This document shows, piece by piece, positions 20,925-48,537 of a DNA stretch of 64,000 nucleotides. Numbering within the stretch: the first letter of the stretch is position 1; each line of letters opens with the position of its first letter. The DNA comes from Torymus aiolomorphi (Eukaryota; Arthropoda; Insecta; Hymenoptera; Torymidae): NCBI GenBank assembly GCA_036365515.1, contig CM070877.1, positions 88,421,522-88,485,521 on the forward strand, read 5' to 3'. A model generated the notes under the pieces. That model was not told the DNA's origin. It did no database searches and worked only from the letters and a program-made list of their open reading frames with translations. Position numbers and translations under genes: made by a program.

Positions 20925-21713
20925 CCCTCCCTAGCGGAAATAATTTTTGTAAATAACTGTTAATAACTGTTAATAACTGTAAATAACAGTTTATAAGTGT
21001 TTGATTTGAGACATTAATAACAGTTATTTATAGTTATTTACAGTTATTTACAGTTATTAACAGTTATTAACAGTTATTAACAGTTATTTACAGTTTTGCA
21101 GAAAAGTACCTGCGAAAACGGAGGTACTGACAAAGGGTATTAACAGTTATTAACGGTTATTAACAGTTATTAACAGTTATTTACAGATATTTACAGTTAT
21201 AAACAGTTTATTTTTTTCGCTATAATACTAACTTTTTTCTTATCAACAAAACTGTAAATAACTGTTAATAACTGTTAATAACTGTTAAAATCTGTTAAAA
21301 ACTGTTAAAAACTGTTAATAACCGTTAATAACTGTAACTAACTTTTATCAGCACCTCCGTTTTCGCAGGTACTTTTCTGCAAAACTGTAAATAACTGTTA
21401 ATAACTGCTAATAACTGTTAATAACTGTTAATAACTGTAAATAACTGTAAATAACTGTTATTAACGTCTCAAATCAAACACTTATAAACTGTTATAAACT
21501 GTTATTTACAGTTATTTACAGTTTTTTACAGTTATTTACAGTTATTTTCATTTTTCATTCCCACTAGGGCTACTAAAAATGATTACCTGGATGATATCAA
21601 ATCAACTTTATCTTGGTTCTAACTTGATTTGCCTTGATTAAAGGTAAATCGGTGCATAATCAAGATAAATCAAGATTGATTTGAGGATATTGAGGTAGTC
21701 ATTTTCATCTGGG
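20925..21713. mobile_element. CACTA-like MITE 'C', split by MITE 'B'
   Basis: The left fragment CCCT (20925-20928) continues at 21572 with ACTAAAAATGATTACCTGG. The right end CATTTTCATCTGGG closes at 21713. Removing MITE B restores the terminal inverted repeat CCCTACTAAAAATGATTACC against CCCAGATGAAAATGACTACC. The body would be only about 150 bp. Confidence 0.65.
20929..21569. mobile_element. CACTA-like MITE 'B' with CT duplication
   Basis: Left end CCCTAGCGGAAATAATTTTT, right end ATTCCCACTAGGG, flanked by CT (20927-20928 and 21570-21571). The interior is a near-perfect inverted arrangement of AATAACTGT words repeated dozens of times, with a short unique core (ACCTCCGTTTTCGCAGGTAC and its complement). 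Confidence 0.85.
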
Positions 21714-25401: not shown

Positions 25402-25603
25402 TGCTCTGAAAAGAACAGTTTTAAATAAAAATATGTATAAACACAATATTTTGTTCCAATTGCTCTGAAAAGAGCAGTTTTAAATATAAGTATGTATAAA
25501 CATATGAATAGTTTGTTCCAATTGCCCTAAAAAGAGCAATTTTAATGAAAATATAAGTATATATATAAACATAATAAATGTTCCATATGCTCTGAAAAGA
25601 GCA
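25402..25603 (-). promoter_or_regulatory. Tandem array of four histone-type 3' stem-loops, minus strand
   Basis: Four minus-strand hairpins of the form TGCTCTTTTCAGAGCA lie at 25402-25417, 25461-25476, 25523-25538 and 25588-25603. Spacing is 59-65 bp and the repeated spacers are AT-rich. Each has a 6-bp stem and 4-nt loop (TTTC or TTTT) like metazoan histone mRNA 3' ends. The bottom pair is T-A instead of G-C. They would end transcripts coming from the right. Confidence 0.7.
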
Positions 25604-26834: not shown

Positions 26835-26910
26835 GCTGATTGGCACGGAGCAGCTCCGCGGAAGGCGATATAAGTAGCGTGTTTCTCTCCGTTCGATATC
26901 AGTCCGAGCA
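26835..26910 (+). promoter_or_regulatory. CCAAT and TATA promoter of the first acidic-protein gene
   Basis: GCTGATTGGCACGGAG (an inverted CCAAT box) is followed 25 bp on by GATATAAGTAGCGTGTTTCT (TATA at 26867-26874), with the ATG 37 bp after the TATA box. The same order and much the same sequence precede the minus-strand paralogue (CGATATAAGTAACGCG), so the promoter was duplicated with the gene. Confidence 0.75.
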
Positions 26911-27459
26911 ATGGACTCCAAAGAGTTAAATTCAGTCCGCGCAATGGACTCCGACGGCGATGAAGCAGTTGCAGCAGCGGACTTTCTCCACATTGATCTC
27001 GACGACTCGGACGAGTGGCAAGTCATCATGCATGGTCTCGCAGCCTTGGAAGGTTGCGAGGCTTTCGACATCGAGAGGCTGCCGGAGTTAGGTCCACTCG
27101 AGGACTTCAATGAGTGGCTATTGGAGATGGAAGAAGCTCGAGAATCATCGCCCATCCCGCTCCAACAACCGCATCAATTGCCGATGACTCTACCAGGCAC
27201 ACCACCGCCTGCTTTATCACCGACGTCTACCTCACCACCACCCCTCATGCTCTATGACAGAGATGGGGGTTATTATGAAGTGCTGGCTGACCACGTCCAG
27301 TGGGAAGCAGTGCCTGAGGTCCTCCTAGTCATTATTACCGATGATGATGATGACGACGATCACGAGATGCCAGCGGAGGATGGTCGTCCTCTGAAAAGAG
27401 GTCGGTCGTCATCACCACCACCACCACCGGATAAGCGGCAACGGCGAAACTCGACTTAA
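26911..27459 (+). CDS. Small nuclear-type protein, acidic/Pro-rich/basic (paralogue 1)
   Basis: Intronless, 182 residues, ATG in a good context right after the TATA box. Residues 1-75 are strongly acidic with a helix reading HGLAALEGCEAF, then LPELGPLEDFNEWL. Residues 80-115 are Pro/Ser/Thr-rich. LMLYDRDGGYYEVL (about 112-125) is matched in paralogue 2. A run of Asp follows, and the end is basic (KRGRSSSPPPPPDKRQRR), like a nuclear localisation signal. This layout suggests a transcription regulator with an acidic activation domain, but I recognise no family. The TAA is followed by histone-type stem-loops. Nearby genes are its paralogue and a third gene of similar layout. Confidence 0.8.
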   Translation: MDSKELNSVRAMDSDGDEAVAAADFLHIDLDDSDEWQVIMHGLAALEGCEAFDIERLPELGPLEDFNEWLLEMEEARESSPIPLQQPHQLPMTLPGTPPPALSPTSTSPPPLMLYDRDGGYYEVLADHVQWEAVPEVLLVIITDDDDDDDHEMPAEDGRPLKRGRSSSPPPPPDKRQRRNST

Positions 27460-27460
27460 T

Positions 27461-27539
27461 CGGCCTTTCTCAAGGACACACACACACACACACACGCACG
27501 CGCACGCGCACACACAGACAATCGGCCCTTTTCAGGGCC
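27461..27539 (+). promoter_or_regulatory. Histone-type 3' stem-loops after paralogue 1
   Basis: Two bases after the TAA lies a degenerate hairpin (CGGCCTTTCTCAAGG). After a (CA)n tract comes GGCCCTTTTCAGGGCC (27524-27539), preceded by ATC: a 6-bp GC-rich stem and TTTC loop, exactly the metazoan histone mRNA stem-loop form bound by SLBP. Confidence 0.8.
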
Positions 27540-27594
27540 CTATATAATTTGAACGAAACAGCAAATTATTTATTTATTTCTATATATTATAATC

Positions 27595-27793
27595 AGCTCT
27601 TTTCAGAGCTAAAATATATTTATTTTGTGTTACAATAAGCTCTTTTCAGAGCTAAAAATATATTTATTTCTATATGTTATATCAGCTCTTTTCAGAGCTA
27701 AAAATATATTTATTTCTATATGTTATAATCAGCTCTTTTCAGAGCTAAAAATATATTTATTTCTATATGTTACAATAAGCTCTTTTCAGAGCT
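27595..27793 (+). promoter_or_regulatory. Tandem array of five histone-type stem-loops
   Basis: AGCTCTTTTCAGAGCT occurs five times, at 27595, 27638, 27684, 27731 and 27778 (spacing 43-47 bp), with spacers of AAAATATATTTATTTCTATA type. Stems and the TTTC loop are invariant; the bottom pair is A-T instead of G-C. This continues the 3' region of paralogue 1. Confidence 0.85.
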
Positions 27794-28002
27794 AAAAATA
27801 TATAACATGGTAACAAACAATTTATTAAAAATCTTGAAACTCTCTCTCTCGTTTCCACTAAAAGAAGTTCGCGCATGCAATTTATGTATACTGAACATTA
27901 TTTTATATATATCTTCACCCAAAGAGATTATGCTTGAAAGAACTGATTTAAAGAAATCTAATAATAATGAATATGTTTGTTCATAGTTAAATAAATATTT
28001 GT
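27794..28002. other. AT-rich spacer between convergent genes
   Basis: Lies between the 3' stem-loop regions of the two convergent paralogues. Purine-rich words such as GAAAGAACTG (about 27935) could act as a histone downstream element, but this is guesswork. Confidence 0.35.
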
Positions 28003-28048
28003 GGCCCTGAAAAGGGCCGATTGTACAGGTTTGGTCCTAAAAAGGACC
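28003..28048 (-). promoter_or_regulatory. Two histone-type stem-loops after paralogue 2
   Basis: Read on the minus strand, GGTCCTTTTTAGGACC (28048-28033) starts 2 nt after the TAA, and GGCCCTTTTCAGGGCC (28018-28003) follows. Both have perfect 6-bp stems with GG/CC at the base and 4-nt T-rich loops, and are preceded by AATC, as in insect histone genes. Confidence 0.85.
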
Positions 28049-28050
28049 GA

Positions 28051-28584
28051 TTATTCGAAGAGACGACGACGACGAGACGGTGATGTTGAATGGTCTTCAC
28101 GATAACGACGTCGCTTTCGAGGTCTGCACTGAAGGTCGTTGTCAACCTCCATTTCGTCATCCGCGTCTTCGGCTTCCCCTGATGTCTGCGGTAGTTGCTC
28201 ATATGCACGAATCAGTGCAAAATCCTCCGGCACCTCATAATACCGCCCTTCATGCGGGTCGTACAGCATGTACGATGGCGGCGATGCGGGTGGTGTTCGC
28301 ATCACGAGGTCCGGAGGAGGTTGCGATGTGTGTGGTCTTCGCAATTCATATTCTTCTTCCTCCTCCTCGAGCAGTGGAGTAGGTGCTCGTTGCTGCTCTT
28401 CCTCCTCCTCCTCAAGCTCTAGATCCATAAGCCATGTGTCAAAAGCGAGAGGAGAGGACAGCTCGGGTATCTCCTCCAACGCAAAAGGTGCGCAATCCTC
28501 CAAAGCTCTCAAGCCATCGAGGATGGCTTCTTGAAGAGACTCATCGTCGAGAAGGTCCTGGAGAAAGTTATTCTTCGACTCCAT
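28051..28584 (-). CDS. Small nuclear-type protein, acidic/Pro-rich/basic (paralogue 2)
   Basis: Intronless, 177 residues. The N-terminus carries LDGLRALEDCAPFALEEIPEL, clearly related to paralogue 1. A long Glu run (about 55-82), a Pro-rich stretch with RTPPASPPS, the shared YMLYDPHEGRYYEVPED motif, an acidic patch, and a basic C-terminus (RPRKRRR ... SRRRRLFE) follow. TP/SP sites suit proline-directed kinases. It is convergent with paralogue 1 and divergent from the gene at 28761. The start follows a TATA box (CGATATAAG on the minus strand, 28622-28630). Function unknown; a nuclear regulator is inferred from composition only. Confidence 0.8.
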   Translation of the reverse strand: MESKNNFLQDLLDDESLQEAILDGLRALEDCAPFALEEIPELSSPLAFDTWLMDLELEEEEEEQQRAPTPLLEEEEEEYELRRPHTSQPPPDLVMRTPPASPPSYMLYDPHEGRYYEVPEDFALIRAYEQLPQTSGEAEDADDEMEVDNDLQCRPRKRRRYREDHSTSPSRRRRLFE

Positions 28585-28760
28585 TGCGAAAAATGATGTC
28601 GATCGGAGAAAAACGCGTTACTTATATCGTCTCTCGTGGAGATGCTCCGTACCAATCAGCAGCCGCGAGCGCCGCGTGGAGAGGAGGAGCACATACACAG
28701 AGGGTGTTGCGCTTTATCTATAAAAGCCACGTAGTTACAGAGCAATCATCACTCGCTGAC
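28585..28760. promoter_or_regulatory. Divergent promoter with CCAAT and two TATA boxes
   Basis: For the minus gene: ATTGG (28652-28656 region, read on minus) then GATATAAGTAACGCG. For the plus gene: TATAAAAG at 28719-28726, 35 bp before its ATG. The region is only 176 bp, as compact as in histone gene pairs. Confidence 0.7.
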
Positions 28761-29246
28761 ATGGATCCATCGAGCGACAACCTCCGAGCAATGGAGACAC
28801 TGTGGAGTGAGACCGATTTCGATTGGGAGATCGGCCTCGCGATGGACAGCGACGACGAGTTTCTCTCGGCGTTGGTGGTACCGCTGGCTACATCATCGCC
28901 GATTAAGTCACCGATTGCGTCGCCAATGTTCACGCCACAACGCTTGCCCTGTCCATCCCCGCTCTTCATTGAGCGACTACCGCACTGCCCACCGCTGGTG
29001 TTGCCGCCGCTGTCGCCGCCGCCTTCGCTCTCACCGGTGCCTTCTTGCTTCTCCCCGGGATTTTTGGAAAAGTACGAGCCGTGCTTTTCTCCAGTCTCTG
29101 AGGAGAAGCAGGATGTGATAGAGGTAGGATCATCGCCTTTGTGCATCACCTCGGGGACGATGTCACCGCGGAAGATGCCGGTGAAGCGACCTCGTGACGA
29201 CAGTGATGAGCCACGTCGGCGAATTCGTCGACGTCTTACGATTTAA
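28761..29246 (+). CDS. Third acidic/Pro-rich/basic protein
   Basis: Intronless, 161 residues from the ATG after the TATAAAAG box. The acidic N-terminus (residues 10-40, with SETDFDWEIGLAMDSDDEF) is followed by a long Ser-Pro-rich centre with many SP motifs (SPIKSPIASPMFTP), then SPRKMPVKRPR and a basic end (RRRIRRRLTI). It shares the overall plan of the two paralogues but not their YYEV motif. The SP density suggests multi-site phosphorylation by a cyclin-dependent-type kinase. Immediately after the TAA come two histone-type stem-loops. Function not recognised. Confidence 0.75.
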   Translation: MDPSSDNLRAMETLWSETDFDWEIGLAMDSDDEFLSALVVPLATSSPIKSPIASPMFTPQRLPCPSPLFIERLPHCPPLVLPPLSPPPSLSPVPSCFSPGFLEKYEPCFSPVSEEKQDVIEVGSSPLCITSGTMSPRKMPVKRPRDDSDEPRRRIRRRLTI

Positions 29247-29248
29247 TC

Positions 29249-29288
29249 AGTCCTTTTCAGGACTATTCAATCGGCCCTTTTCAGGGCC
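29249..29288 (+). promoter_or_regulatory. Two histone-type stem-loops after the third gene
   Basis: AGTCCTTTTCAGGACT (29249-29264) starts 2 nt after the TAA. GGCCCTTTTCAGGGCC (29273-29288) follows, again preceded by AATC. Same arrangement as after paralogue 2 on the other strand. Confidence 0.85.
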
Positions 29289-29574
29289 TCGAATATTTTT
29301 AACGTATGAGCAAATATTCATGTTTTATTTAAATAACATATATTTATAATTATCATTATGTAATTTATTTTAAATACTAGCTATATTCAACGAGCTTCAC
29401 GCGTATTATTTCCGATCGAGTTAGTTAGATTCAATTTAAAAGTTTAAAAGTTTGATAAATAAAATAACTAATATTTCTTTTACTATTTCGATTATTCAGT
29501 TTTTAAATATTCAAACATAATCGATTTTGACGCTTTACTGTGAGGATAGATCACTTTTTTAAGAGAGAAGAATA
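29289..29574. other. AT-rich spacer
   Basis: Between the third gene and the mariner-type insertion. No gene or motif recognised. Confidence 0.4.
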
Positions 29575-30621
29575 TACCGGGTGTCCCATTTTAAAACCAC
29601 CAGGCAAATATCTCGAAAACTAAGGGATATGGAAAAAAACTTTTAATAGAAAAGTTGTAGGGTTCAGAGGGGCCCAACTGATCGTGACCTTGGTTATGAC
29701 CTCGAGGTCAATGATCAAGGTCATTTGAAGATCAAATCGATTTTTTCAAATGGGAAGCTCCACTTTTGACCTTATAAATGGAAAGAGCGGAAAATTTTAC
29801 GTTCAGATATGTCCTTGAGTCAAGGTCATCGTCATGGTCATGGTCATGTTTAAAATCAAAATCAATCAACGCATCAAAACATTCCCATAATTAGGCATAC
29901 GAGACAAATTGTTAAATACAAAAGTTGTAGGGTTCAGAGGGGCCCAACTGATCGTAACCTTGGTTATGACCTTGTGGTCAATGATCAAGGTCATTTGAAG
30001 GTCAAATCGATTTTTTCAAATGGGAACCCCCATTTTTGATCTCGTAAATGGAAAGAGCGGAAAATTTTACGTTCAGATATGTCCTTGAGTCAAGGCCATG
30101 GTCATGGTCATGGTCATGTTTAAAATCAAAATCAATCAACGCATCCAAACATTCCCATAATTACGCATACGAGTGTTAAATACCGAAGTTGTAGGGTTTG
30201 GAGCGGCCCAACTGATCGTGACCTTGGTTATGACCTTGAGGTCAATGATCAAGGTCATTTGAATGTCAAATCGATTTTTTCAAATGGGAACCCCTATTTT
30301 TGACCTCGTAAATGGAAAGAGCGGAAAATTTTACTATTTTTACTATTATCAATATTTACTAGGGTTAACCACTTATATCAAATAATAACAAAAGTTAATA
30401 AGTGTTGACCACCTGTATCCAATAGTGACCGGTAGTATTCAGCATTGATCGGTATTAGTCAATAATTATTACTGTTTACATCAAATTGTTTTCAAATTGA
30501 ACACACTTATATTGGCACAGAAAATTAAACTTTTTCGTTTTAAAATATTGTATAGTATAATAACATATTATTTCTTTTGTGGTGTGTTTTGATAAATAAT
30601 TGCATTTACAACTAAAAAAGA

Positions 30622-31689
30622 ATGCCTGACTATTCTGCTAATGAAATAGTTGAAATTCTTCTTATTTTAGGAGAATGTCGACGAAACTATCGAGAGGCAA
30701 GCAGATTGTATCGTGCTCGGTTCCCTCAACGACAACAGCCTGATCATACGGTAATACGTGACATTGAACTGCGCGGTCGACAAGGAAACTTCGTTCGAAG
30801 AAGGAGGACACTGAATGAACACGATTATGAAAATAATCCTCGCTTTCTTGCTGTTCTAGCCATGGTACATTTAAATTTTCATGTCAGTTTACGCGAAATC
30901 GAGTTAACAATGGGTATTCCAAGATCTACGGCCAGTAGATATTTACGATATGCGCGTTACCATCCCTACCACATTACTCTAAATCAAGCTTTAACTGTGG
31001 AAGATTATCGACGGAGAATAACATTTTGCCAATGGGCAACACAACAAATTACTGATGATGAAAATTTCTTTAACAATGTTCTTTTTAGCGACGAGGCTAC
31101 ATTTCAGAGTACTGGTATGTTGAATCGCCATAATTGCCACTACTGGTCTCCTGTTTATCCTCATTGGATGCGAGAAGTTGATCATCAGCATCGCTGGAAT
31201 GTAACGGTATGATGTGGTATTATTAACGGATGTCTGATTGGACCTTATTTTTTTGTAGGTCACGTAACTCAACATACTTATTTACAGTTGCTGAGAGACG
31301 AGCTGCCACTCTTTCTAGAAAACGTTGATCTCCATACAAGGGCCAGAATGTGGCTACAACAAGATGGTGCTCCTCCACATTATGCCAGAATTGTCAGAGA
31401 TTTTCTTAATGAAAGGTTTAACGGTCGATGGATTGGTAGAGGAGGTCCCGTAGCATGGCCACCAAGATCTCCAAATCTGACATCTCCAGATTTTTATTTA
31501 TGGGGCTTCCTAAAAAATACAGTCTACCGCAACAGGCCAACTACAAGAGATGACATGATTCAAAGGATTACACAAATCTGCTTAAGTATTCCACGTCAAG
31601 TATTATTAAATACTGTTAGAAACTTTAAAAGGAGAATAGAATGTTGTCAACAAATAAATGGTGCAACTTTTGAGCATCTTCTTCAGTAA
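30622..31689 (+). pseudogene. Mariner-type DD41D-like transposase, one premature TGA
   Basis: The frame runs from ATG 30622 to TAA 31689, about 355 codons, with a single in-frame TGA at 31210-31212. Residues 1-60 form the HTH domain common in insect mariner-type proteins (LGECRRNYREASRLYR). Catalytic signatures are FSDEATF, WLQQDGAPPHYA and SPDFYLWG; 41 residues separate the second and third Asp, so spacing is DD41D-like. GPYFFVGHVT is also conserved. The stop falls where a Trp is usual. Otherwise the protein looks complete, so inactivation is recent or the stop is read through. Confidence 0.85.
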
Positions 31690-31765
31690 ATGGTGACCGA
31701 AATACTTGGATCCTATGACTAAATACACATGAACGTGGAATTTTCCAATGAATTTTTAGCTGTCC

Positions 31766-31996
31766 TGATCATCCCCGACCTTGCCTTAACTGGCCGGGTC
31801 ATCTCCGACCTTGCCTTAACTGAGCGGGTCATCTCCGACCTTGCCTTAACTGGCCGAGTCATCTCCGACCTTGCCTTACCTGGCCGGGTCATCTCCGACC
31901 TTGCCTTAACTGGCCGGGTCATCTCCGACCTTGCCTTAACTGGCCGGGTAATCTCCGACCTTGCCTTAGGTGACCGGGTCATCTCCGACTTTGCTC
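31766..31996 (+). repeat. 30-bp minisatellite, seven to eight copies
   Basis: TCCGACCTTGCCTTAACTGG followed by CCGGGTCATC repeats with a 30-bp period just downstream of the transposase. Because 30 is a multiple of three, long false ORFs appear on both strands. Confidence 0.93.
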
Positions 31997-32603
31997 TTAA
32001 CTGCACGGAAACTGACCATAACTTTGACCATGACCTTGACCCAAGGTCATATCAGAATTTTTCGGTTTTTCTATTTACGAGGTCAAAAGTGAGGGTTGCC
32101 GTTAAACAAAATTGATTTAACCTTCAAACGACATCATCCTTGACCTCAAGTTCATGGTCAAGGTCACGATCAGTTGGGCCCCTCCAAACACTACAACTTC
32201 TGTATTTAACACTCGTATGCGTAATTATGGGAATGTTTGGATGCGTTGATTGATTTTGATTTTAAACATGACCATGACCATGGCCTTGACTCAAGGACAT
32301 ATCTAAACGTAAAATTTTCCGCTCTTTCCATTTACGAGGTCAAAAGTGGGGGTTCCCATTTGAAAAAATCGATTTGACCTTCAATTGACCTCAAGGTCAT
32401 AACCGAGGTTACGATCAGTTGGGCCCCTCTGAACCCTACAACTTTTGTATTAAAAGTTTTTTTCCATCTCCCTTAGTTTTCGAGATATTTGCCTGGTGGT
32501 TTTAAAATGGGACACCCGGTATATATAATTATAAGAAATTAATATAACCACAAAATTTAATAAAAAATGTTTATTAATTCATAATAAATGAACAAATTAT
32601 AAT

Positions 32604-33197
32604 TCAAATATACATAAAGTGATAGGATTTTGATATTTCCTTCACGTTTTTGTTATGTTGATGCTCAAGCATCCATCTTTTTATAACTACTGCGTTTCGA
32701 AGTGCGCATACTGGAAAGTTACAGGCAGTATGGTTGGTACATGAGACTGATTCTGCAGGTAGACTTTTCAATGAAGGACATCCCATCTTTTCGATATTAG
32801 TAACTAATCTGGAAATTATAAATATTATGAAAAACGTTTTTTATGAAAATAATTTTATAACAAAAATAGCTTACTGATCGGGGAAAAATCTCTTCAACCA
32901 TTTACTTTTCTCCATTCCTTTCACATAAATCTCTGCTCCGAAGAGTACCCCACTTAGAGTGTTTTCTAGTTCATCGTATGGGATGTTGCCTGCTCTCCAC
33001 ATTATTCCATGGAAATTTTGTTCAAGCCAGCGATTTTCAGACTTGTTTTTTTCCAACAACATGTCCCATGTATAAGGCGGTTTAAATAGGAAAACCGATG
33101 GTGTAGGGTCTTCCTCGAGAGGGATGATAGCTACTTCCTTGAAGACGAATTCATTCAAGGTAATTTTGAAACCATGGACATCAACAATATACTTCAT
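32604..33197 (-). CDS. Polinton-associated protein of unknown function (left copy), two exons
   Basis: Exon 1 is 33197-32875 (ATG before KYIVDVHGFK) and exon 2 is 32808-32604; donor CA/GTAAGC, acceptor TTTCCAG, phases agree, giving 175 residues. The protein is related along its length to the gene at 44770-45285 at the other end: VDVHGFK / VDMQGFK, FVFKEVA / FVLKELA, FLFKPPY / HLFKPPF, FHGIMW / YHGLSW. The C-terminus has a Cys/His cluster (CTNHTACNFPVC) that may bind zinc. A longer upstream frame to 33341 exists but the internal ATG fits the paralogue. Function unknown. It is divergent from the polymerase gene. Confidence 0.75.
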
Positions 33198-33435: not shown

Positions 33436-36400
33436 ATGCCTCAATACTTCAAAAATACAGCTCTTATGCTATGTCAATCGTATCGGCTTGCTTTAAGTGG
33501 TGCGGCTGACCAAAATGATGTGAACAATTGGATTGCGCTTGGCCGTAGCGCTCTAGTTGAAGCTGAAAAATTGGCTCAGCGCAGGCCCGAGTTAAGAGAC
33601 TTAACAGTGGCTGATAGGCAAAAGTTGCAAGCTGCCATCGCGCTCATAAAGAGTGTTCTACTCTTGTTGAGCGAACATCGAGTGGTGGGTGCCGGGCTAC
33701 AAGCGAGTGAAAATGGCCCCTCGGTAAGCTGGGATGATGTCGAATCAGCTTTCGAGAACAGAATAAAGACGGGTGTCATCACAAACCGGAGACATCTTGA
33801 TTTATTAAAGTTCATGAAAGACGCTAAGCAACAATTTATTGAAAAAGTGCGTGAAATTCTTAAAGAACTTTTAAAAGTGAACACAGTGTTAGCGGCCGAG
33901 TACGCTATAGTTAAAAATGGCGAAGAGACAATTGAAATAAAATATTTCAACACAAAAACAGCTTCGATATATTCGACTACGGACTTGAATGAGTGGTTTG
34001 TTATGAACGTGCACAATCCAATCGACACTGATATGGAAGAGTTTCAAGAGCGCGAGTCGGGCTGGTCGCTTAAATCAATCTTAAATTTAGTTGTGAACAT
34101 TTACAAGTTCAATCCAATGAGAGGAAGCTCGTACATTGATTTGCCGCCATTCATCAAGAACAAGAAGGCGTGTATAAATGTAGAAAATCAAGATAATGAA
34201 TGTTTCAAGTGGGCAATTCTATCGGCACTACACTATACTAGGATAAATTCTAATCGAGTGGCGACATATGTACCTCATCAGGACGATCTCAACTTTAAGG
34301 GAATCAATTTTCCCGTTGATCCCAGAAAAGTTGGTAAGTTTGAGAAACAAAATGACATTTCTGTAAATGTGTACTATTTAAAGAAAAAAGGAGAAGCGTT
34401 TGATGTCTTACCTCGTCACTTGACGGCTGACAAAAAAGATACACATGTGAATTTATTACTCATTGAAAATAATTATGTTGACGAGAATGAAGATGGCTCG
34501 GCTCTCAATGATGATGATATTGAATTTAAATTCCATTATGTATGGATAAAAAATTTATCAAGACTGTGTAGTAAACAGCTTTCTTCGCACAACCGTAAAA
34601 CTTTCATCTGTGACCGCTGTCTACATTATTTTCGAACTGAAGAGAAGTTGACTAAGCACATAACTGACTGTGAAAAAATAAATCAGTGTAAAATTACTCT
34701 TCCATCTGTGAAAAACAATACTTTAGAGTTTACAAACTTTGGTTTTAAGAATCGTATGCCGTTCGTAATATACGCTGACTTTGAATGTATATTGAAGCCT
34801 GTAATTGACAATGAATGAGCTTACCAGCATCACGGGCCGTTTAGTGTGGGATTTTTCATTAAATGTAGCTATGATGACTCTCTCTCGGAATATAAGAGTT
34901 ATAGACAAGAGGATGAACAAACCGAATCTCCAGCCAAATGGTTTGTACAGAGTCTTCGCTCTCTGGCTGTGAAATTGAATGATTCATATAAAAATCCAAA
35001 GCCAATGAATAACCTAACATCGCTTGAAAAAATTATGTTTGACCGAGCACGTCTATGTCATATTTGCGAGAAGCCATTTACTAAGGAAGACAAGCGAGTA
35101 CGCGACCATTGCCATTTTACGGGAAAGTGAGTATTTATTTCTCTCTCTCTCTCTCTCTCTCTCTCAACTAAAAATTATTGCAGATATCGTGGACCTGCAC
35201 ATAGCAAATGTAATCTTGGCTTCCAAGACTCGAGAACGATCCCCATAGTTTTTCACAACTTGAGCGGATACGATTCTCATCTCTTTATCATAGAAACTGC
35301 AACGTGCTTTCCAGGACGAGTTTTGCTACTTCCACAAACAAAAGAGAAATACATATCTTTTACAAAGTTTGTGGAAGGTACAGACATAAACCTGTGATTC
35401 ATCGACTCGTTCAAGTTTATGGCTTCATCACTCGACAAGTTGGCATCATATTTGGAGAAACTGAATACTCTGGAGCGAATGTTTAAAGAAGATGGTCTAT
35501 GCGATGAACAAATTTCACTTTTGAAGAGAAAAGGAGTTTTTTCATACGACTATGTCTCATCGTTCGAAAAGCTAAACGAACCAAATCTCCCTTCGAAAGA
35601 TGACTTCTTTAGCAGTTTATATAACGCTCATATCAGCGATGAGGATTATGAGCATGCACAGAACGTTTGGCAGAGTTTCAGCATACAAGATCTTGGGCAG
35701 TACTCTGACTTATATCTCAAGACAGATGTTATACTATTGACTGAAGTTTTTGAAAATTTCAGAAATAATTGTCTTGAGGCTTATGAGTTGGATCCCGCTC
35801 ACTATTACACGACACCCGGATTGACTTGGGATGCAATGCTCAAAAATACTCAGGTATGATTTACTTTAAATAAAATTAATTAACTAAAATTCACAATTAA
35901 AAAAAAACAAATTTTATATTTTACAGATTAAACTTGAGCTTCTTACCGATGTGGGCATGTTGCTGTTTATCGAGCGCGGCATACGGGGAGGAATAAGTCA
36001 ATGTTGCAATCGATATGCAAAAGCGAACAACGCGTACATGAAGGATGGTTACAACACTAACGAGGACGAAAAATATTTGATGTATTTCGATGTGAACAAT
36101 TTGTACGGTTGGGCAATGACTGAGCCCTTAACCTATGGTGGCTTCAAGTGGGTGCAGAATGTCAACGAACCAAACTTCTTCGACATCCCCGATGACTGCG
36201 ACTTTGGATACTTTGTCGAGGTGGACCTGAAGTATCCCGAGTCACTGCATGATTCGCATAAAGATCTGCCGTTCTGTGCCGAACACATGGCGCCTCCTGG
36301 CTCGAATCAGCATAAACTTATGACGACGCTTCACGACAAAACTCGTTACGTGCTACACTACCGAGCACTTAAACAGGCTTTGAAACATGGCTTCGTTCTC

Positions 36401-37651
36401 GTCAAAGTCCATCGTGCCATACAATTCAAGCAGAGTCCTTGGCTTAAAAAGTACATCGATTTGAACAGCGCAAAAAGGAAGGAAGCCAAAAACAAGTTTG
36501 AAAAAATGCTTTTCAAACTTTTCAACAACGCTGTGTATGGCAAGACGATGGAGAATGAGAGGAAACGCGTTGACGTGAAGCTAGTCACTAAGTGGAAAGG
36601 TCGCTATGGAGCCGAGGCACTTATCGCATGACCGAATTTTCACAGCTCTGACATTTTTGATGAAGACCTCGTTGCTGTGCAACTGCTGCGCACGGAGATC
36701 TACATAAGAAAGCCAATCTACATTGGATTGTCAGTTCTGGACTTATCAAAAACGCTAGTATACAGGTTCCACTATGACTACATGCGAGATCGTGTAGGAG
36801 ACCAAAGCCAGTTATTGTACACCGACACGGATAGTCTGATCTATGAAGTCACAGGTGTTGACATGTACAACGTGATGCGGCAAGACATCCCCGAGTTTGA
36901 CACATCAGACTATCCACAGACCAATCCATTTAACATGCCACAAGCCAATAAGAAGAAGGTTGGCTTGATGAAGGATGAGTGCAACGGTGAGATTATGCTA
37001 GAGTTCGTCGGGCTGCGGAGCAAAATGTACAGCGTCAAAGTCCAGAACCAGAAACCCATTAAGAAGGCCAATGGAGTGAAGACTTCTGTAGTCAAACTCT
37101 CCATCAGCTTTGAGGATTACATCAAGTGCCTTCACGAGAACGTCATCGTCACTCGAGAGCGCCGAAACATCAGGTCTCGACATCACAATATCCACACTGA
37201 GAAAGAGAGGAAAATTGCTCTCAGTACCCATGACGACAAACGCTGCCTGCTGCCTGGCACTGCAGATACGCTGCCCTCGGGCCACTACAGAGCAGGAGTG
37301 GTGGGGGAAGAGCAGGCCAATCAGAACGAAGAAGTTGCTGGAGAGGGGGAACGCGAGCCGCCGAACGCCGCCGCCACCGAAGAGCTTCTATATAATGAGG
37401 CCGCGCGAGAGCAGGAGGTCATTCGCACAGTCGAGCCTTCCAGCAGTAGTCTTCAGCAACAGCTCCAGCGGATCTCAACGCCGCTTCCTCGATCTTGGCA
37501 GCAGATTACTTCAGTTGCGCAGCCGCTTCTCGCTGTCTCACGGCCGTTTCTTGCTGTCTCGCAGCCGCTTCCTGCAGCTTCGCTCCTCGTCTTAAAAAGA
37601 CCTTGTGAGGAAAATACTGAAAGTATTATTAAGAAAAGGAGAGAAATCTAA
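33436..37651 (+). pseudogene. polB: Protein-primed DNA polymerase B of Polinton
   Basis: Family-B polymerase that would copy the linear element from a terminal protein. The reading frame starts at the ATG at 33436. It includes a C2H2-type finger (CDRCLHYFRTEEKLTKHITDC region, about 34607), exonuclease motif YADFEC (about 34770), motif A DVNNLYGWAM (36089), motif B KLFNNAVYGK (36515) and motif C YTDTDSL (36818), then a Gln/Pro-rich C-terminal extension beyond the usual end (about 37290-37651). Two introns fit: 35127-35183 (57 nt, with a (TC)n tract) and 35854-35926 (73 nt). Breaks are three in-frame TGA codons at 34816, 35395 and 36629. No frameshift is seen. The exon reading frames are otherwise continuous. 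Confidence 0.9.
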
Positions 37652-38324: not shown

Positions 38325-39239
38325 TTACGTATCTTTTTTCTCAATCCAACTATTATGTGAATTATCAAAGCCAAGCCATTTTACAAAAATTTTACATCCT
38401 TTTTTCTTTATTACTTTTTCTACAAGATAAATATCTGGATACTTGGCCTTGAGTAGTTCTTGCTCGTAGAAACCGCCTGAAACAGGCTGATCTTGATAGT
38501 CCTTTAGATGGTAAGTTGGAGGATTTGTAGCTGCTACACGTACAATTGTAAATATCTCTGTAGACCAATTGGGAGTATATCCTTTGTCAAATACTGCTTT
38601 AGCCTTGCTCACTCGGACTTTGTCACCAATTTTAAATTTTGGTTTAATTTTCTTAGTTATTTTAGGGGAAAATTTCCTCAGTATATCTGCTTCATTATTG
38701 GCTGTTACATCTTTAGGTTTCACGCCAATAGTACGATGTTTACGATTATTGTATGCAGTAAGTAAATCGGGTAAAATATCTAGCCACTTGTAGCTGCCGC
38801 GCAAACTGAATTTTTTTCACATTACACTTTTTAGCGTACAATTAAAGCGTTCATATATGGATGCTTTTAGGTTGCTATAGGTTGAGTACAATTTAATTTC
38901 GTATGTGTTCATAAGTTTTTGAAAATCTGTGTTATAAAATTCTTTTCCTCGATCAGTATGGAGATTTTTCGGTACTCTGCCTTTAGCCAGCACAGATTTC
39001 ATAGCTTTTGAGACATCTTTGCCTGTTTTTCTCTTTACAGGAATAGCCCATGCATATTTGGAGAAAATGTCGATTATAGTGAGCAAGTACCTATAGTCCT
39101 TATTATCGCGCGAATATGGAATCATTTCGACGAGATCTGCTTGCCAAGTTTCATCCAAACCACGTACGTCAAAGTGTCGACGTGTATAGTTACGTCTTGC
39201 AGGTTTATGTAGTTCTTCAACTAGTCTTTCGTGTTCCAT
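38325..39239 (-). pseudogene. int: Polinton integrase with chromodomain, one premature TGA
   Basis: Retroviral-type integrase that would insert the element. From ATG 39239: TWQADLVEM (D35), HTDRGKEFYN (D96) and IYERFN (E130), an rve core with about 33 residues between the last two acidic residues. Past an in-frame TGA at 38815-38817 the frame goes on with the C-terminal part, KVRVSKAKAVFDKGY and then a chromodomain (YLVEKVIKKKGCKIFVKWLG), ending at 38325. About 304 residues in all. An N-terminal zinc-binding region is not obvious. It lies 10 bp downstream of the fibre-like gene on the same strand. Confidence 0.88.
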
Positions 39240-40568: not shown

Positions 40569-41273
40569 CTATGTGTATGCTATATTTATAGCAAAATTGT
40601 CAAAGCCCTTACGAAATCTGCCGTCATTTATTCCTCGATCTTTATCGATGACTAGAAAACCGTGCTTATCATCTGTCCAACACTTAGAGCACAATTCTTT
40701 AAAATGTATATAAGTCATATCGGTATTTACGTGATCGTCATAGATATGCTTTAGATTTACCTCATCTTGTCTAAAAATGGCAAGTAAGTTTACATTATCT
40801 CTGACAAGATGTTTTGGAACGTGAGCATAAGTTTGGCATAGATAAAAACAATCAACCTTTTTATGTCTGCCCATGCAGAAGAAGGCCCTAACATTATCTT
40901 GTTTTTCGCAAGCAATATCGTCAAATATCATGATAGAGTTCGGAAGCGCGTGGTCAGGATCGGCAACTGCATCGTGCTCGCTGAACGGAAAATATTGTAC
41001 ACCTTCTATGGGTTCTAAGATTTCATTTAAAAATTTATATTTTGGTTGATTGAGAGACTTTGAGTAAACGTATACGTTTTCAAATCTAACACCATTAGGA
41101 TGCGTTATGAGAGCAAGTAAACTATTTGTTTTTCCGCAGTTTGACGGACCGCAGAACACGGCTCGTATACTATCAGGAAGTAGATCGCCGTGTCGCTTTT
41201 CTCTTTTATCATGCTCTACAAGTACATCAAAATTTTCTATTGGCAGCTTTACCGACTGCTCCTTGAAGTTCAT
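40569..41273 (-). CDS. Packaging ATPase (A32/FtsK-HerA type)
   Basis: 234 residues, intact. It would pump DNA into capsids. Walker A is GPSNCGKT (residues 42-49) and Walker B is IMIFDD (about 114-119), followed by a sensor-like CQTYAHVP. Length and motif spacing suit the Polinton/adenovirus-like and poxvirus A32 group. The ATG at 41273 lies about 50 bp below a shared divergent promoter. Its reading frame has escaped the decay seen in polymerase and capsid genes. Confidence 0.88.
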   Translation of the reverse strand: MNFKEQSVKLPIENFDVLVEHDKREKRHGDLLPDSIRAVFCGPSNCGKTNSLLALITHPNGVRFENVYVYSKSLNQPKYKFLNEILEPIEGVQYFPFSEHDAVADPDHALPNSIMIFDDIACEKQDNVRAFFCMGRHKKVDCFYLCQTYAHVPKHLVRDNVNLLAIFRQDEVNLKHIYDDHVNTDMTYIHFKELCSKCWTDDKHGFLVIDKDRGINDGRFRKGFDNFAINIAYT

Positions 41274-41376: not shown

Positions 41377-42222
41377 ATGATCATTCACAAACGTGGACGC
41401 GGTTTAGTTAATAAAATTATCAATAAACTTCCATTTGAGCTCCACATACCCGGTTATCAGTACTGCGGCCCCGGCACTAAGTTGGCAAAACGTTTAGCTC
41501 GAGGAGATCTTGGAATTAATCTCTTAGACACTACTTGCAAGGAGCACGATATAGCTTATTCTAAAAATCGTGAAAACGTTCAAGCGAGAAACGACGCAGA
41601 TAAAATTTTATCTGAGAAAGCTTGGAAACGCGTTAAATCAAAAGACGCTAATTTTGGTGAAAAAGTGGCTGCATACGCTATAACTAATACTATGAAATTA
41701 AAATGTAGACTCGGTATGGGGTTGAAGAAGAAAAATAAAAAGCGAAAGAACACTAAAAAATTGGGAATGGGTTTAAAGAAGAGAAGCCAAGTTCCCTTGA
41801 AAAAAATTATCAAAGCTGGTGCCTTTAAATCACCGCCAAGTAACTGCGCTCTAACAGTCATACGATCAGCTTTGAAAAAAGCACGGAGCGCTGTTAAAGA
41901 ATCTGAAGGTAAAAAGAATATTAAAATTCCACGTATTTTACCAGTCCCCACGAAAACAGGAGGGGTATTGCCATTTCTCATACCTCTATTTGCAGGTTTG
42001 AGTGCAACTGGCGCTCTAGCTGGTGGTGCTGCTGGAATAGTAAAAGCCGTAAACGACGCAAAAGCCGCTAAGGAGCAGTTGGAAGAAAATAAAAGGCATA
42101 ATAAAACTATGGAAAGTGTAGCGTTGGGCAATGGCTTATATCTTAAACCACACAAAGTAGGGTTAGGTCTCCATTTAAAAAAAAAAAAAGTTCATGAAAT
42201 TACCTCAGCGAGCACTTACTGA
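41377..42222 (+). CDS. Virion protein with phospholipase A2-like domain
   Basis: 281 residues from ATG 41377. Residues 27-33 (YQYCGPG) are the calcium-binding loop and residues 54-61 (CKEHDIAY) the His-Asp catalytic dyad of the viral PLA2 type known from parvovirus VP1. A basic middle with repeated MGLKK motifs (about 100-140) is followed by a hydrophobic, glycine/alanine-rich segment (FLIPLFAGLSATGALAGGAA, about 205-230), a charged helix and a Lys-rich tail. It probably acts on endosomal membranes during entry. The end overlaps the protease gene by 29 nt in another frame. Intact frame. Confidence 0.8.
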   Translation: MIIHKRGRGLVNKIINKLPFELHIPGYQYCGPGTKLAKRLARGDLGINLLDTTCKEHDIAYSKNRENVQARNDADKILSEKAWKRVKSKDANFGEKVAAYAITNTMKLKCRLGMGLKKKNKKRKNTKKLGMGLKKRSQVPLKKIIKAGAFKSPPSNCALTVIRSALKKARSAVKESEGKKNIKIPRILPVPTKTGGVLPFLIPLFAGLSATGALAGGAAGIVKAVNDAKAAKEQLEENKRHNKTMESVALGNGLYLKPHKVGLGLHLKKKKVHEITSASTY

Positions 42223-42556
42223 CGCCGACATATTAAAATATGCAAAACTTTTAAAAATACCTAATTTTCGAGGAGTATTTATGAGAAACGCATTGCCGGC
42301 TTCTGGCCCACACTATTACGAATCGGCTATAGTTAATCTAGATGATGCTAGCGGCCCTGGGACACACTGGGTTGCATATAGAAAAAGAGGCAAAAATGTT
42401 ATATATTTCGATAGTTTTGGCGATCTTCGACCGCCTTTAGATTTAATATTATACCTCGGAGTAGACGAAGTTAAATATAATCATGAAAGATATCAAGATT
42501 TTGACACATACAATTGCGGACATCTATGTCTAAAATTCTTGTGCGGGGCTATATAA
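42194..42556 (+). CDS. Adenain-type cysteine protease
   Basis: 120 residues, intact. It would mature virion proteins, as adenovirus protease does. Candidate catalytic residues: H58 in GTHWVAY, D73 in YFDSFGD, Q101, and C108 in YNCGHLCLKFL, the order of the C5 (Ulp1-like) family. The ATG at 42194 lies inside the tail of the PLA2 gene, so the two are translationally linked or come from separate transcripts. The stop overlaps a TATATAAGG box (42549-42557) that would drive the next gene. Confidence 0.87.
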   Translation: MKLPQRALTDADILKYAKLLKIPNFRGVFMRNALPASGPHYYESAIVNLDDASGPGTHWVAYRKRGKNVIYFDSFGDLRPPLDLILYLGVDEVKYNHERYQDFDTYNCGHLCLKFLCGAI

Positions 42557-43462: not shown

Positions 43463-44698
43463 ATGGAAGAAATTCTAAGCATACAGACACCTGTAACTTT
43501 TGATGAATCCGTAGCGCACTACGAGGTTCATGCTCACCAACCGTATACATCATCATTTAATAACAGCGATGAAATACGCATATCTATTCAATATCAAGAT
43601 TTATGTCTCTTACCTTCACGCAGTGCGCTACATATCTGCGGACGATTGGTTAAAACTAATAATACTCCCGTTGAAAATACAAAACTTGTGAATAATGCCA
43701 TTTGTCATTTGTTTGAAGAAATCAGATATGAGTTGAACGCCATTGAGATAGACAAATGTAAAAATGTTGGTTTAACTACTCTCATGAAAGGATGGGTGTC
43801 ACTCAATCCGACTCAGAGTTTTATCTTGAAAATGCTGGCTGGATCGATATAGAAGAAACACAAAAGATAATCGATGATGCCGGTTACTTCAATGTATCGA
43901 TTCCATTGAGCCTAATTTTTGGCTTCGCAGAGGACTATCGTAAAATAGTAGTAAACGCAAAGCATGAACTCGTTCTCATGAGATCAAGAAACGACTTGAA
44001 CGCTGTTGTACAAACAGCTACACGAGCAGCCGAACAAGACGTTTATGAGAACTTTAAAATTGAATTAACTAGAATCGAATGGCTTATGCCATACGTAGTT
44101 GCATCTAACTCTAACAAAATTCGCCTACTAGATTTTGTAGGAAAAGACCGTCCTATTGTCATGAGTTTTCGCACGTGGGAATTGTATGAATACCCATTAC
44201 TTCCGATTACGTCGAGACAGGTGTGGACTGTAAAAACATCAAATCAACTTAAAAAACCACGCTTCGTCGTCTTAGGTTTTCAAAATTTTCAGTCGAAAAG
44301 ATAAGAAGGCAGTAAACGCTAGCCGCTTTGATCACTACAATCTTACAAATGTAAAACTCTTTCTCAATTCTCAGTCATATCCGTATGGTAATCTTAACCT
44401 CGATGTGAATCGTAATCAATTTACCATGCTCTACGATATGTACGCTAATTTTCAAAATTCTTACTACGGCAAAGATCCAGAACCTATGTTGAGAAAGTCG
44501 CAATATCTCACATACATACCGCTGATAGTAATAGACTGCTCAAAATAAAACGAGTCCTTAAAAAGCGCCCCTGTAGACATCCGTCTGGAATTTGAAGCAA
44601 AGGAAAATTTTCCGGCTGGAACTTCAGTCTACTGCTTGATCTTGCACGATCGTATAGTTCAATATAGTCCCGTAAACGGCGACGTGCAGAAACTTTAA
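43463..44698 (+). pseudogene. Major capsid protein-like gene, two frameshifts and a stop
   Basis: About 411 codons from ATG 43463 to TAA 44698. Conserved stretches in order: EIRYELNAIEIDK, then after a 1-nt loss near 43804 LENAGWID and GFAEDYRKIVVNAKHEL, FRTWELYEYPLL, then after a second shift near 44293 NASRFDHYNLTNVK and YPYGNLNLDVNRNQF, an in-frame TAA at 44547-44549, and IRLEFEA near the end. I take it as the major (double jelly-roll, hexon-like) capsid protein from its position beside penton and protease and its wide occurrence in insect Polintons; structure prediction would be needed to prove the fold. Confidence 0.7.
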
Positions 44699-44769: not shown

Positions 44770-45285
44770 ATGGACTACGCAGTGGATATGCAGGGCTTTA
44801 AAAAGCCTGGCAATGATTTTGTTTTGAAAGAGTTGGCTTTTGTGTCTCTCAACGACGGCGATGAGCCAGTAGTGCACCTCTTCAAGCCACCATTTCCTTG
44901 GCGAAGACTGACAGACAAGTACAAACGTGAAAATTTGTGGTTAGAACTTTGCTACCATGGCCTGTCATGGGATGGTGGTGATTACGATTATACTGAAATC
45001 GGAAAAATTATTCAAGATGCATTGAAAGATGCTAACAGAATTTTTGTCAGTGGTGTGATAAAAAAGTTGTGGTTAGAGCGTTTCAACTTCAAAGTTACAG
45101 ATATCACTGAAATGGGCTATCCGGCGTTCGATTATCCAAGATCAGTGACTATATGTGCTAATCATAATGGAGCGTACAAAACTACTTGTGCTCGATACAA
45201 CGTAAAGCGCATGAAGCAGTTTTACCTCAACGATTCAAACATGGAGTGGGAAGACATCATGGAATGGGAAGATATTGATGAATAA
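44770..45285 (+). CDS. Polinton-associated protein of unknown function (right copy)
   Basis: 171 residues, intact, intronless. Paralogue of the 32604-33197 gene: shared VDMQGFK, FVLKELAFVSL, HLFKPPFPW, WLELCYHGLSW and a C-terminal Cys/His cluster (ICANHNGAYKTTC). It ends with an acidic near-repeat (WEDIMEWEDIDE). The two copies lie at opposite ends of the core region and point outward, so they may have arisen by terminal duplication. Function unknown; zinc binding is inferred from the Cys/His spacing. Confidence 0.78.
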   Translation: MDYAVDMQGFKKPGNDFVLKELAFVSLNDGDEPVVHLFKPPFPWRRLTDKYKRENLWLELCYHGLSWDGGDYDYTEIGKIIQDALKDANRIFVSGVIKKLWLERFNFKVTDITEMGYPAFDYPRSVTICANHNGAYKTTCARYNVKRMKQFYLNDSNMEWEDIMEWEDIDE

Positions 45286-46369: not shown

Positions 46370-46985
46370 CCTAGTGGAAATCGTTTTTGTGAATAACTGT
46401 AAATAATTGAAAATAACTGAAAATAATTGTTTGATTTGAGACGTAAATAACAGATATTTTCAGTTATTTACAGTTATTTACAGATATTTTCAGTTATTTA
46501 CACTTTTGTAAATTAATAATTGTAGGAAAAAATGTATTGAGAACAGTTATTAACAATCATTTTCAGTTTTTTCTGTTATTTACAGTTATTTACAGTTAGT
46601 TACAGTTATCTTCAGTTATTTACAGTTATTTTCAGTTATTAACATTTATTTTCAGTTATTTACAGTTATTAACAGATTTTTACAGTTATTTACAGATATT
46701 TGTTAATATACACATTTAATTTTTTTCGCTATAATGACAATTTTATTTTCCATCAACAAAATTGTAAATAACTGTAAATAATTGTAAGAAACTGTAAATA
46801 TCTGTAAATAACTGTAAAAAACTGTAAATAACTGTAAATAACTGAAAATAACTGAAAATAATCGTTAGTTACGTCTCAAACCAAACAATTATTTTCAGTT
46901 ATTTACAGTTATTTACAGTTATTTTCAGTTATTTTCAGTTATTTACAGTTATTTTCAGTTACTCACAAAAACGATTTCCACTAGG
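46370..46985. mobile_element. CACTA-like MITE 'D' with AATAACTG subterminal arrays
   Basis: Ends CCTAGTGGAAATCGTTTTTG and CAAAAACGATTTCCACTAGG are exact complements. The interior is repeated AATAACTGT / ACAGTTATT and AAAATAACTG words, as in MITE B at 20929-21569. About 616 bp; the 2-bp duplication is not clear because of a possible C loss at the left end. Confidence 0.85.
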
Positions 46986-47982: not shown

Positions 47983-48537
47983 TGTTACGTGTGAGCCTAT
48001 CTCGGTTCACGCACGTACGAAGGGTTCTGAGGTATTCGTGTCGTTCCAAGCCGAGACTCTAAACGATGCAGTGAAATAGTAAACTAGAGTTAAAGTATAC
48101 TTGAGTTATTTATTAAAATACTTATAGGCGCGAGAGAGATAATCGTAACGCGCGTCCGCGATGCAACCGATCGACGTCCTCTCGTGAATTCGTTATCCGC
48201 TCATCCTCGTCCCTCGTACCTCGCTTCCGTCCTCTCTCTGACCCCGCTTTCGTTCTCTTTCTTTCTGTCTTCTGGATGCGTTCCCCTTGGTTTTTATATC
48301 TCTGTCTTGGGGATCGTAAGTGGGGGATCATTGCTCATCGGCTGTTCGTTTCTTCCCCCTAATTCGACGTCCAGATCTCGTGCCGGTGATTCAGTGCCTC
48401 GCGGATTCGCTGTTCTGCTGACTGGCATTGGTTGATGTCATGCACCTTCGACATTCGACGTCCTCTATCAACGCTCGGCATATTGCTGACCGGGAGTTTG
48501 TGTTGCGCTTTCTCTCTGGAAGCTACCACTCGTAACA
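47983..48537 (-). repeat. 3' LTR (555 bp)
   Basis: Nearly identical to 55739-56340 but lacks a segment of about 50 bp (GGGCTACGTGTCTTCG ... region) before the GCGCTTTCTCTCTGG end. Begins TGTTACG, ends CGTAACA. Confidence 0.93.

What the first reader, a model, noticed from the sequence alone, without database searches (positions are those of the whole stretch)
26835..29288. Three non-histone genes ending in histone-type 3' stem-loops
Each of three small intronless genes (26911+, 28051-, 28761+) has a TAA followed within 2 nt by a stem-loop: GGTCCTTTTTAGGACC for the minus gene, AGTCCTTTTCAGGACT for the third, and a degenerate loop for the first, each then followed by a perfect GGCCCTTTTCAGGGCC. 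Seen: 6-bp stems, 4-nt T-rich loops, AATC in front, TATA boxes, CCAAT boxes for two, compact divergent/convergent layout. Known: this stem-loop form is the SLBP-bound 3' signal of replication-dependent histone mRNAs. Inferred: these genes borrow histone-type processing and S-phase timing. The proteins (acidic, SP-rich, basic end) are not histones. I know of no described case in a selfish element.
Basis: partly seen in the sequence, partly recalled or inferred. Interest (0 to 1): 0.9.

Follow-up and report, generated by a model that had tools for sequence, protein, structure and literature searches.

The report
Mobile-element genes ending in histone hairpins
Three non-histone genes inside a virus-like mobile DNA element end in the RNA hairpin that animals use to mark histone messages, so the element may be borrowing the host's system for making messages during DNA replication.

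Summary
Three intact ORFs (26911+, 28584-, 28761+) are each followed, 2 nt after TAA, by a histone-type stem-loop and then by GGCCCTTTTCAGGGCC. Gene 1 has five further loops in tandem, and a minus-strand array of four lies at 25402-25603: 15 in all. Ten strict 6-bp sites occur in 64 kb, all here; null mean 0.02. Loops behind genes follow gene orientation, and stems show double-sided changes. Rfam Histone3 is above threshold at one loop, below it at ten more. Terminal loops share an element 10-13 nt downstream, where a U7 site would lie. Out-of-frame tails of three relatives encode the same loops, two with the exact 24-nt spacing. Core genes nearby are Polinton/adintovirus-type. Best reading: element genes use host SLBP/U7 3'-end processing, giving poly(A)-less, replication-linked mRNAs. 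No RNA data, host genome or host U7 was available, so processing and timing are inferred. No described case appeared in the papers searched, some of whose listings were partial.

The parts
26836..26874 (+). Gene 1 promoter: CTGATTGG (inverted CCAAT) and TATAAG
   Evidence: aligned with the gene 2 promoter
26911..27459 (+). Gene 1, 182 aa, acidic with basic C-terminus; paralogue of gene 2
   Evidence: (32% identity, E 9e-17)
27462..27477 (+). Gene 1 SL1, 2 nt after TAA, 5 of 6 bp
   Evidence: 17.7 bits
27524..27539 (+). Gene 1 SL2 GGCCCTTTTCAGGGCC
   Evidence: 27.1 bits, E 0.00017
27552..27565 (+). HDE-like element AACGAAACAGCAAA
27595..27793 (+). Array A: five tandem AGCTCTTTTCAGAGCT loops (SL3-SL7), period about 47
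27804..27817 (+). HDE-like element AACATGGTAACAAA after the last array loop
28051..28584 (-). Gene 2, 177 aa, acidic with basic C-terminus
28033..28048 (-). Gene 2 SL1 GGTCCTTTTTAGGACC
   Evidence: 14.9 bits
28003..28018 (-). Gene 2 SL2 GGCCCTTTTCAGGGCC; inside the Rfam Histone3 hit 28023-27979 above gathering score
   Evidence: 36.6 bits, cut-off 34
27976..27989 (-). HDE-like element TAACTATGAACAAA
28621..28656 (-). Gene 2 promoter: CCAAT and TATA, homologous to the gene 1 promoter; in the divergent region shared with gene 3
28719..28726 (+). Gene 3 TATA box TATAAAAG
28761..29246 (+). Gene 3, 161 aa, SP-rich, three full CDK consensus sites, basic C-terminus
29249..29264 (+). Gene 3 SL1 AGTCCTTTTCAGGACT
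   Evidence: no Histone3 row of its own; counterpart encoded in the tails of P0006 and P0007
29273..29288 (+). Gene 3 SL2 GGCCCTTTTCAGGGCC
   Evidence: 23.1 bits; counterpart encoded in the tails of P0006 and P0007
29301..29314 (+). HDE-like element AACGTATGAGCAAA
25402..25603 (-). Array B: four loops (25588, 25523, 25461, 25402), U-A first pair, two of them with a G-U pair; no intact gene found upstream; TATAAA at about 25700 on the same strand
33436..37651 (+). DNA polymerase B of the element, broken into several frames
   Evidence: PF03175 above cut-off in 35957-36631, below cut-off in 35419-35859; stops in all frames
38817..39239 (-). Retroviral-type integrase core
   Evidence: PF00665, 4.6e-16
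40569..41273 (-). A32-type packaging ATPase, open ORF
   Evidence: PF04665, 9.2e-09
41377..42222 (+). Phospholipase A2-like protein, open ORF
   Evidence: PF08398, 3.6e-11
42194..42556 (+). Adenain-like cysteine protease (weak match)
   Evidence: PF00770, E 0.049, below cut-off
43463..44304 (+). Double jelly-roll major capsid protein, two overlapping frames
   Evidence: PF21738, 8e-13 and 8.3e-42
20948..21520 (+). Candidate left terminal repeat region (10-bp repeats, itself partly palindromic); outer end not fixed
46388..46937 (-). Candidate right terminal repeat region

Best explanation
The three genes are early or regulatory genes of an animal (probably insect) Polinton/adintovirus-type element. 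Their pre-mRNAs carry the host's replication-dependent histone 3'-end code: an SLBP-type stem-loop (shown by sequence) and, beginning 10-13 nt behind the terminal loop, a shared element where U7 snRNP would base-pair (position and sharing shown, U7 pairing inferred). Host SLBP, U7 snRNP and CPSF73 would cut 4-5 nt after SL2, or after the last loop of array A for gene 1. This gives short, unspliced, poly(A)-less mRNAs that are exported and translated through SLBP and accumulate when the host replicates DNA (all inferred), the state in which a nuclear DNA element with its own polymerase can copy itself. SL1, 2 nt after the stop codon, would be an extra SLBP or decay site, and the arrays back-up processing sites or SLBP reservoirs (inferred).
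For: Histone3 hit above the gathering score at gene 2 SL2, the only family above its cut-off in the window. Ten more Histone3 rows below it, all on the strand with the T-rich loop. Ten strict loops in 64 kb, all here, null mean 0.02. Pairing: 59 of 60 cells over 10 distinct rows of 11, and 83 of 84 over 14 distinct rows of 15; 4 of 6 pairs change on both sides; slid partners pair in at most 60% of cells. SL2 differs by one compensated pair from a loop GGCUCUUUUCAGAGCC printed among the histone substrates of PMC7026596. Orientation follows the gene in all three genes (+, -, +). HDE-like element: 0 of 400 shuffles at widths 14 and 16. Out-of-frame tails of P0006, P0007 and P0019 encode 2, 2 and 3 loops, against 8 sites in 900 shuffled peptides. 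Single-ORF genes with TATA/CCAAT promoters and a divergent pair, as I recall for histone clusters.
Against: 14 of 15 loops fall below Rfam's gathering score or give no row. The 5' flank is mostly AATC, AATA or AAAC rather than CCAAA, and the 3' flank ACAAA is found only at gene 2 SL2. AATAAA occurs 451, 177 and 170 nt behind SL2 of genes 1, 2 and 3, and ATTAAA 285 nt behind gene 1 SL2, so ordinary polyadenylation is possible. SL1 lies so close to the stop that a terminating ribosome would cover it. The HDE-like motif was spotted by eye before it was tested, is not significant at width 10 with four sequences (34 of 400), and could be shared by duplication of a 3' cassette (genes 2 and 3 align over about 150 nt). 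The number of different pair types does not exceed the shuffles (500 of 500 and 398 of 500), and 13 of 500 shuffles reached the number of pairs with double changes. No RNA, host genome or host U7 could be examined. Polymerase and capsid frames of this copy are broken.
Confidence: 0.75

Rival explanations
1. Captured relic: the 3' ends were copied from a host histone gene, perhaps with its promoter, and are now passive. The mRNAs are made by ordinary cleavage and polyadenylation downstream.
For: AATAAA lies 170-451 nt behind SL2. In Drosophila without SLBP, histone genes read through to downstream cryptic poly(A) sites (PMC2781718, passages). Cassette-like similarity of the gene 2 and gene 3 3' flanks.
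Against: Changes on both sides in 4 of 6 pairs. Loops still encoded in diverged relatives. Loops multiplied into arrays.
Confidence: 0.12
2. SLBP/U7 decoy: the arrays, and perhaps the doubled loops, serve mainly to bind host SLBP and so disturb host histone mRNA maturation while the element replicates.
For: Nine loops in two arrays, one of them (array B) without an intact gene and about 100 nt behind a TATAAA.
Against: Two loops sit at a set place behind each of three intact genes, which a pure sponge does not need; array A units could be plain tandem duplication (90% matches). No abundance data.
Confidence: 0.1
3. DNA-level or other RNA-level palindromes: the repeats are protein-binding sites on DNA, or transcription terminators, that resemble histone loops.
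For: Palindromic form; tandem arrays; AT-rich spacers.
Against: All 11 loops behind the three genes have the T-rich loop on the coding strand, following gene direction +, -, +. One loop passes the histone family model's cut-off.
Confidence: 0.03

Closest known systems
Replication-dependent histone mRNA 3' end (Rfam RF00032 Histone3; SLBP, U7 snRNP, HDE)
   Same: 16-nt hairpin with 6-bp stem and UUUC/UUUA-type loop, U-A top pair, second pair G-C, single-ORF short genes, shared downstream element, TATA/CCAAT promoters
   Different: Proteins are not histones; two loops per gene and arrays; first loop 2 nt after the stop; 5' flank AATC; host U7 complementarity unknown
Polinton/Maverick and adintovirus-type elements
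   Same: PolB, rve integrase, A32-type ATPase, double jelly-roll capsid, PLA2, weak adenain match, candidate inverted-repeat ends
   Different: No histone-type 3' ends in the listings and passages seen
Adintovirus 'Oncoid' class genes (PMC11071296, passages: defined solely by short linear motifs)
   Same: Small motif-rich proteins; SP-rich, CDK-type sites, basic tail
   Different: No LxCxE and no PxDL[ST] in the three proteins; that these two motifs are typical is recalled, not from a call
SLBP binding to a viral RNA: SARS-CoV-2 frameshift element (PMC12166091, title and abstract start in a search listing)
   Same: SLBP acting on a non-histone viral RNA
   Different: That is ribosomal frameshifting in an RNA virus, not histone-type 3'-end formation

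Membership tests
Histone 3' stem-loop (RF00032) | Covariance score above the curated cut-off | tested here: met
   Met at 1 of 15 loops (36.6 against 34); 10 more rows below the cut-off, one more
Histone 3' stem-loop (RF00032) | 6-bp stem kept by compensatory change, 4-nt UUUC/UUUA-type loop | tested here: met
   98-99% of cells paired, 4 of 6 pairs with double changes
Histone 3' stem-loop (RF00032) | HDE pairing with U7 snRNA | tested here: inconclusive
   Shared element beginning 10-13 nt after terminal loops; host U7 not available
Histone 3' stem-loop (RF00032) | Located at the end of a histone gene | tested here: not met
   No Pfam family above cut-off for the three proteins
Replication-dependent histone-type mRNA (function) | Cleaved 4-5 nt after the loop, no poly(A), S-phase peak | not testable with these tools
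   No RNA data
Polinton/adintovirus element | PolB, retroviral-type integrase, packaging ATPase and double jelly-roll capsid together | tested here: met
Polinton/adintovirus element | Terminal inverted repeats and 6-bp target duplication (recalled) | tested here: inconclusive
   Candidate inverted repeat regions, themselves partly palindromic; outer ends and target duplication not fixed
E1A/Oncoid-like motif proteins | LxCxE or CtBP-type PxDL[ST] motif (recalled) | tested here: not met
   0 in genes 1-3; of 23 proteins scanned one LxCxE, in the out-of-frame tail of P0019, and no PxDL[ST]

The most novel reading that the evidence does not exclude
A selfish DNA element has taken over the whole replication-dependent histone 3'-end code (loop plus U7 site) to make poly(A)-less, S-phase-locked mRNAs for non-histone nuclear regulators, and uses loop arrays, one without a gene, to bind SLBP and bias host histone mRNA maturation while it replicates. 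It would be the first natural set of non-histone genes on the histone mRNA pathway.
Probability: 0.25. Interest if true: 0.95.

Novelty: new variant of a known kind. Interest (0 to 1): 0.8.

Why it matters
A 2009 paper calls the 3' stem-loop unique to histone mRNAs and says SLBP had never been implicated in direct regulation of other genes (PMC2781718, passages). A virus-like element with this code on several of its genes would break that rule. It would be a natural test of what the code alone confers, and would show how an integrated DNA element could time expression to host replication without a regulator of its own.

Tried and rejected
Searches for the same arrangement in viral contigs gave nothing. 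Gene 2, the gene 3 alignment, the ATPase, one PolB piece and the protease found no relatives. The pattern GGCYCTTTTCAGRGCC hit 101 stretches; the 80 rows listed have one match each. None of the 101 fetched stretches (906 kb) holds two loops within 150 nt, against ten such neighbouring pairs in the window. I take those hits as chance.

The ATPase had no match in phage records. A protein search with P0019, hoping for more read-through relatives, returned five proteins, all known already and P0019 itself among them.

Fold work was uninformative. The gene 1/2 family model has mean pLDDT 67, with 0 PDB matches at E<=0.001. The gene 3 model has pLDDT 57 and almost no secondary structure.

The other Rfam rows (Fluoride, mir-598 twice, P31, snoZ178, Six3os1_2, SCARNA7) are below their gathering scores; I treat them as chance.

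An intact fourth gene in front of array B was looked for and not found. E1A-like motifs were looked for and not found in the three proteins.
Full report
What is there. Between about 25.4 and 29.3 kb the window holds 15 hairpins of the histone 3'-end type. Three open ORFs (26911-27459 +, 28584-28051 -, 28761-29246 +) each end in TAA, followed by TC and a first hairpin, then 24-62 nt further on (start to start) by GGCCCTTTTCAGGGCC. Gene 1 has five more hairpins AGCTCTTTTCAGAGCT in an array of period about 47. It has no intact gene in front that I could find, but TATAAA at about 25700 on the same strand.

Is it chance? A strict motif with six Watson-Crick pairs occurs 10 times in 64 kb, all here, with null mean 0.02 and maximum 1 over 200 block-Markov resamples. 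The pattern with one mismatch gives 12 sites, 10 of them here, null mean 0.55, largest 4. Up to two mismatches to GGCTCTTTTCAGAGCC, the RNA form of which is printed among the substrates of PMC7026596 (its name was cut off in the passage, I take it as H2a-derived), gives 10 sites, all among the 15, null mean 0.01. A looser motif gives 19 sites, null mean 2.41, maximum 8; 14 of the 19 are the hairpins described, and 5 are not of histone type, one of these lying at 26380 between the genes and array B. In one search, 0 of 101 viral-contig stretches carried two loops within 150 nt.

Is it the histone hairpin? Rfam Histone3 scores 36.6 at gene 2 SL2, above the cut-off of 34, the only family above threshold in the window. 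With the E-value mode on 6 kb, 11 of the 15 hairpins gave a Histone3 row (one above and ten below the cut-off), all on the strand with the T-rich loop. Gene 3 SL1 and three array B units gave none; one of those reached 13.1 bits in a search of 401 bases. Stem pairing is kept by change on both sides in 4 of 6 pairs. Over 10 distinct rows, 59 of 60 cells pair; over 14 distinct rows, 83 of 84. The first pair is G-C, A-U or U-A in different loops. In the shuffle control 0 of 500 reached the observed covariation score, 13 of 500 reached the number of pairs with double changes, and the number of pair types was no higher than in shuffles (500 of 500 and 398 of 500). Array units are related by duplication, so rows are not independent. 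Gene 1 SL1 has one broken pair in this copy.

A U7-type site. The three SL2 loops and the last loop of array A share an element beginning 10-13 nt behind the hairpin: AACGTATGAGCAAA, TAACTATGAACAAA, AACGAAACAGCAAA, AACATGGTAACAAA. I saw the likeness by eye and then tested it with these four flanks: at widths 14 and 16 no shuffle of 400 reached the observed score, at width 12 one did, at width 10, 34 did; with the three SL2 flanks alone, 4 of 400 at width 10 and none at 12-16. PMC7026596 (passages) places the HDE behind the loop and notes that Drosophila HDEs are AU-rich. Shared descent of a 3' cassette is an alternative: the gene 2 and gene 3 flanks align over about 150 nt. Two array B units have GGAACAAA only about 4 nt behind the loop, which does not fit the same geometry.

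Relatives. The protein database gave 9 relatives of gene 3 among 91 candidates and 11 of genes 1 and 2 among 1132, all from ENA contigs of 0.8-12.3 kb without organism names; they may come from the same or a near species. Three of these 20 run out of frame past the usual end, and their tails encode hairpins. P0006 and P0007 encode both gene 3 hairpins at exactly the window's spacing of 24 nt; P0019 encodes three gene 1 hairpins (spacings 96 and 72 against 62 and 71 here). The other 17 relatives and the three window proteins encode none, but they do not read across that region, so they are no test. 900 shuffled versions of the three gave 8 sites in all and no peptide with two. The residues between and behind the loops differ between copies while the loop residues are kept, and the P0019 tail allows a fully paired SL1 where this window has a mismatch (partly by eye). 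These are inferences from peptides; the DNA could not be fetched.

Setting. The cluster lies between candidate inverted-repeat regions at 20.9-21.5 and 46.4-46.9 kb, beside DNA polymerase B (PF03175, one piece above and one below cut-off), integrase (PF00665), A32-type ATPase (PF04665), PLA2 (PF08398), double jelly-roll capsid (PF21738) and a weak adenain match. This is a Polinton/adintovirus-type element. Polymerase and capsid frames are broken in this copy, while the three small genes and the ATPase and PLA2 ORFs are open. Another transposon with a DUF4817 helix-turn-helix protein sits at 29572-32524. The host is probably an insect, from general character only.

The proteins. Genes 1 and 2 are paralogues (32%, E 9e-17) and share the promoter block with CCAAT and TATA. 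Gene 3 shows no clear relation to them. It is SP-rich (11 S/T-P against 4.9 in shuffles), with three full CDK consensus sites; of 10 family members 6 carry three, two carry two, one carries one and one carries none. All three proteins end in basic stretches. They look like nuclear, perhaps CDK-regulated, regulators; that is inference. Fold prediction gave no usable match.

Mechanism and rivals. The most likely reading is host SLBP/U7 processing of element mRNAs, with expression linked to replication. Shown: hairpin type, orientation, pairing, placement, a shared downstream element, and the loops in relatives' tails. Inferred: SLBP binding, U7 pairing, cleavage, lack of poly(A), timing. AATAAA 170-451 nt behind SL2 leaves ordinary polyadenylation open; Drosophila histone genes also use downstream cryptic sites when SLBP is lost (PMC2781718, passages), so its presence does not decide. 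The arrays invite a sponge reading, which I rate lower.

Novelty. In the held library: histone stem-loop with Polinton, 0 papers; histone stem-loop with non-histone and virus, 0; histone stem-loop, transposon and SLBP, 1, the Drosophila Slbp paper; adintovirus with histone, 5, none on this by title and abstract start or, for PMC11071296, passages. The wider listings, 25 of 186, 15 of 28, 9 of 9, 20 of 45 and 25 of 225 papers, showed no such case by title and abstract start. PMC6035795 (wasp Polintons) has no 'histone' or 'stem-loop' in its text, nor has PMC11071308. The library lacks most subscription journals, and the main adintovirus paper is not held.

Noticed in passing
window 25402-25603 (-): Four-unit hairpin array of period about 60 with a U-A first pair, no intact gene found upstream, TATAAA about 100 nt upstream: possibly a non-coding hairpin RNA or the 3' end of a decayed fourth gene divergent from gene 1.
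   Followed up: partly
window 29572-32524: DNA transposon with inverted ends (141 nt, 96%) and a DUF4817-type helix-turn-helix ORF, inserted 283 nt behind gene 3 SL2; holds 30-bp tandem repeats at 31726-32024.
   Followed up: no
window 47983-48443 and 55739-56196: Direct repeats 97-99% alike about 7.75 kb apart, right of the Polinton, possibly the LTRs of a retrotransposon.
   Followed up: no
window 58056-61605: Fold-back element: 400-nt arms 99% complementary with 2750 nt between them.
   Followed up: no
window 32871-33197 (-) and 44770-45285 (+): Two copies, by eye, of one unknown element protein family at the two sides of the core genes; the second has no Pfam match at E<=0.1, the first was not scanned.
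   Followed up: no
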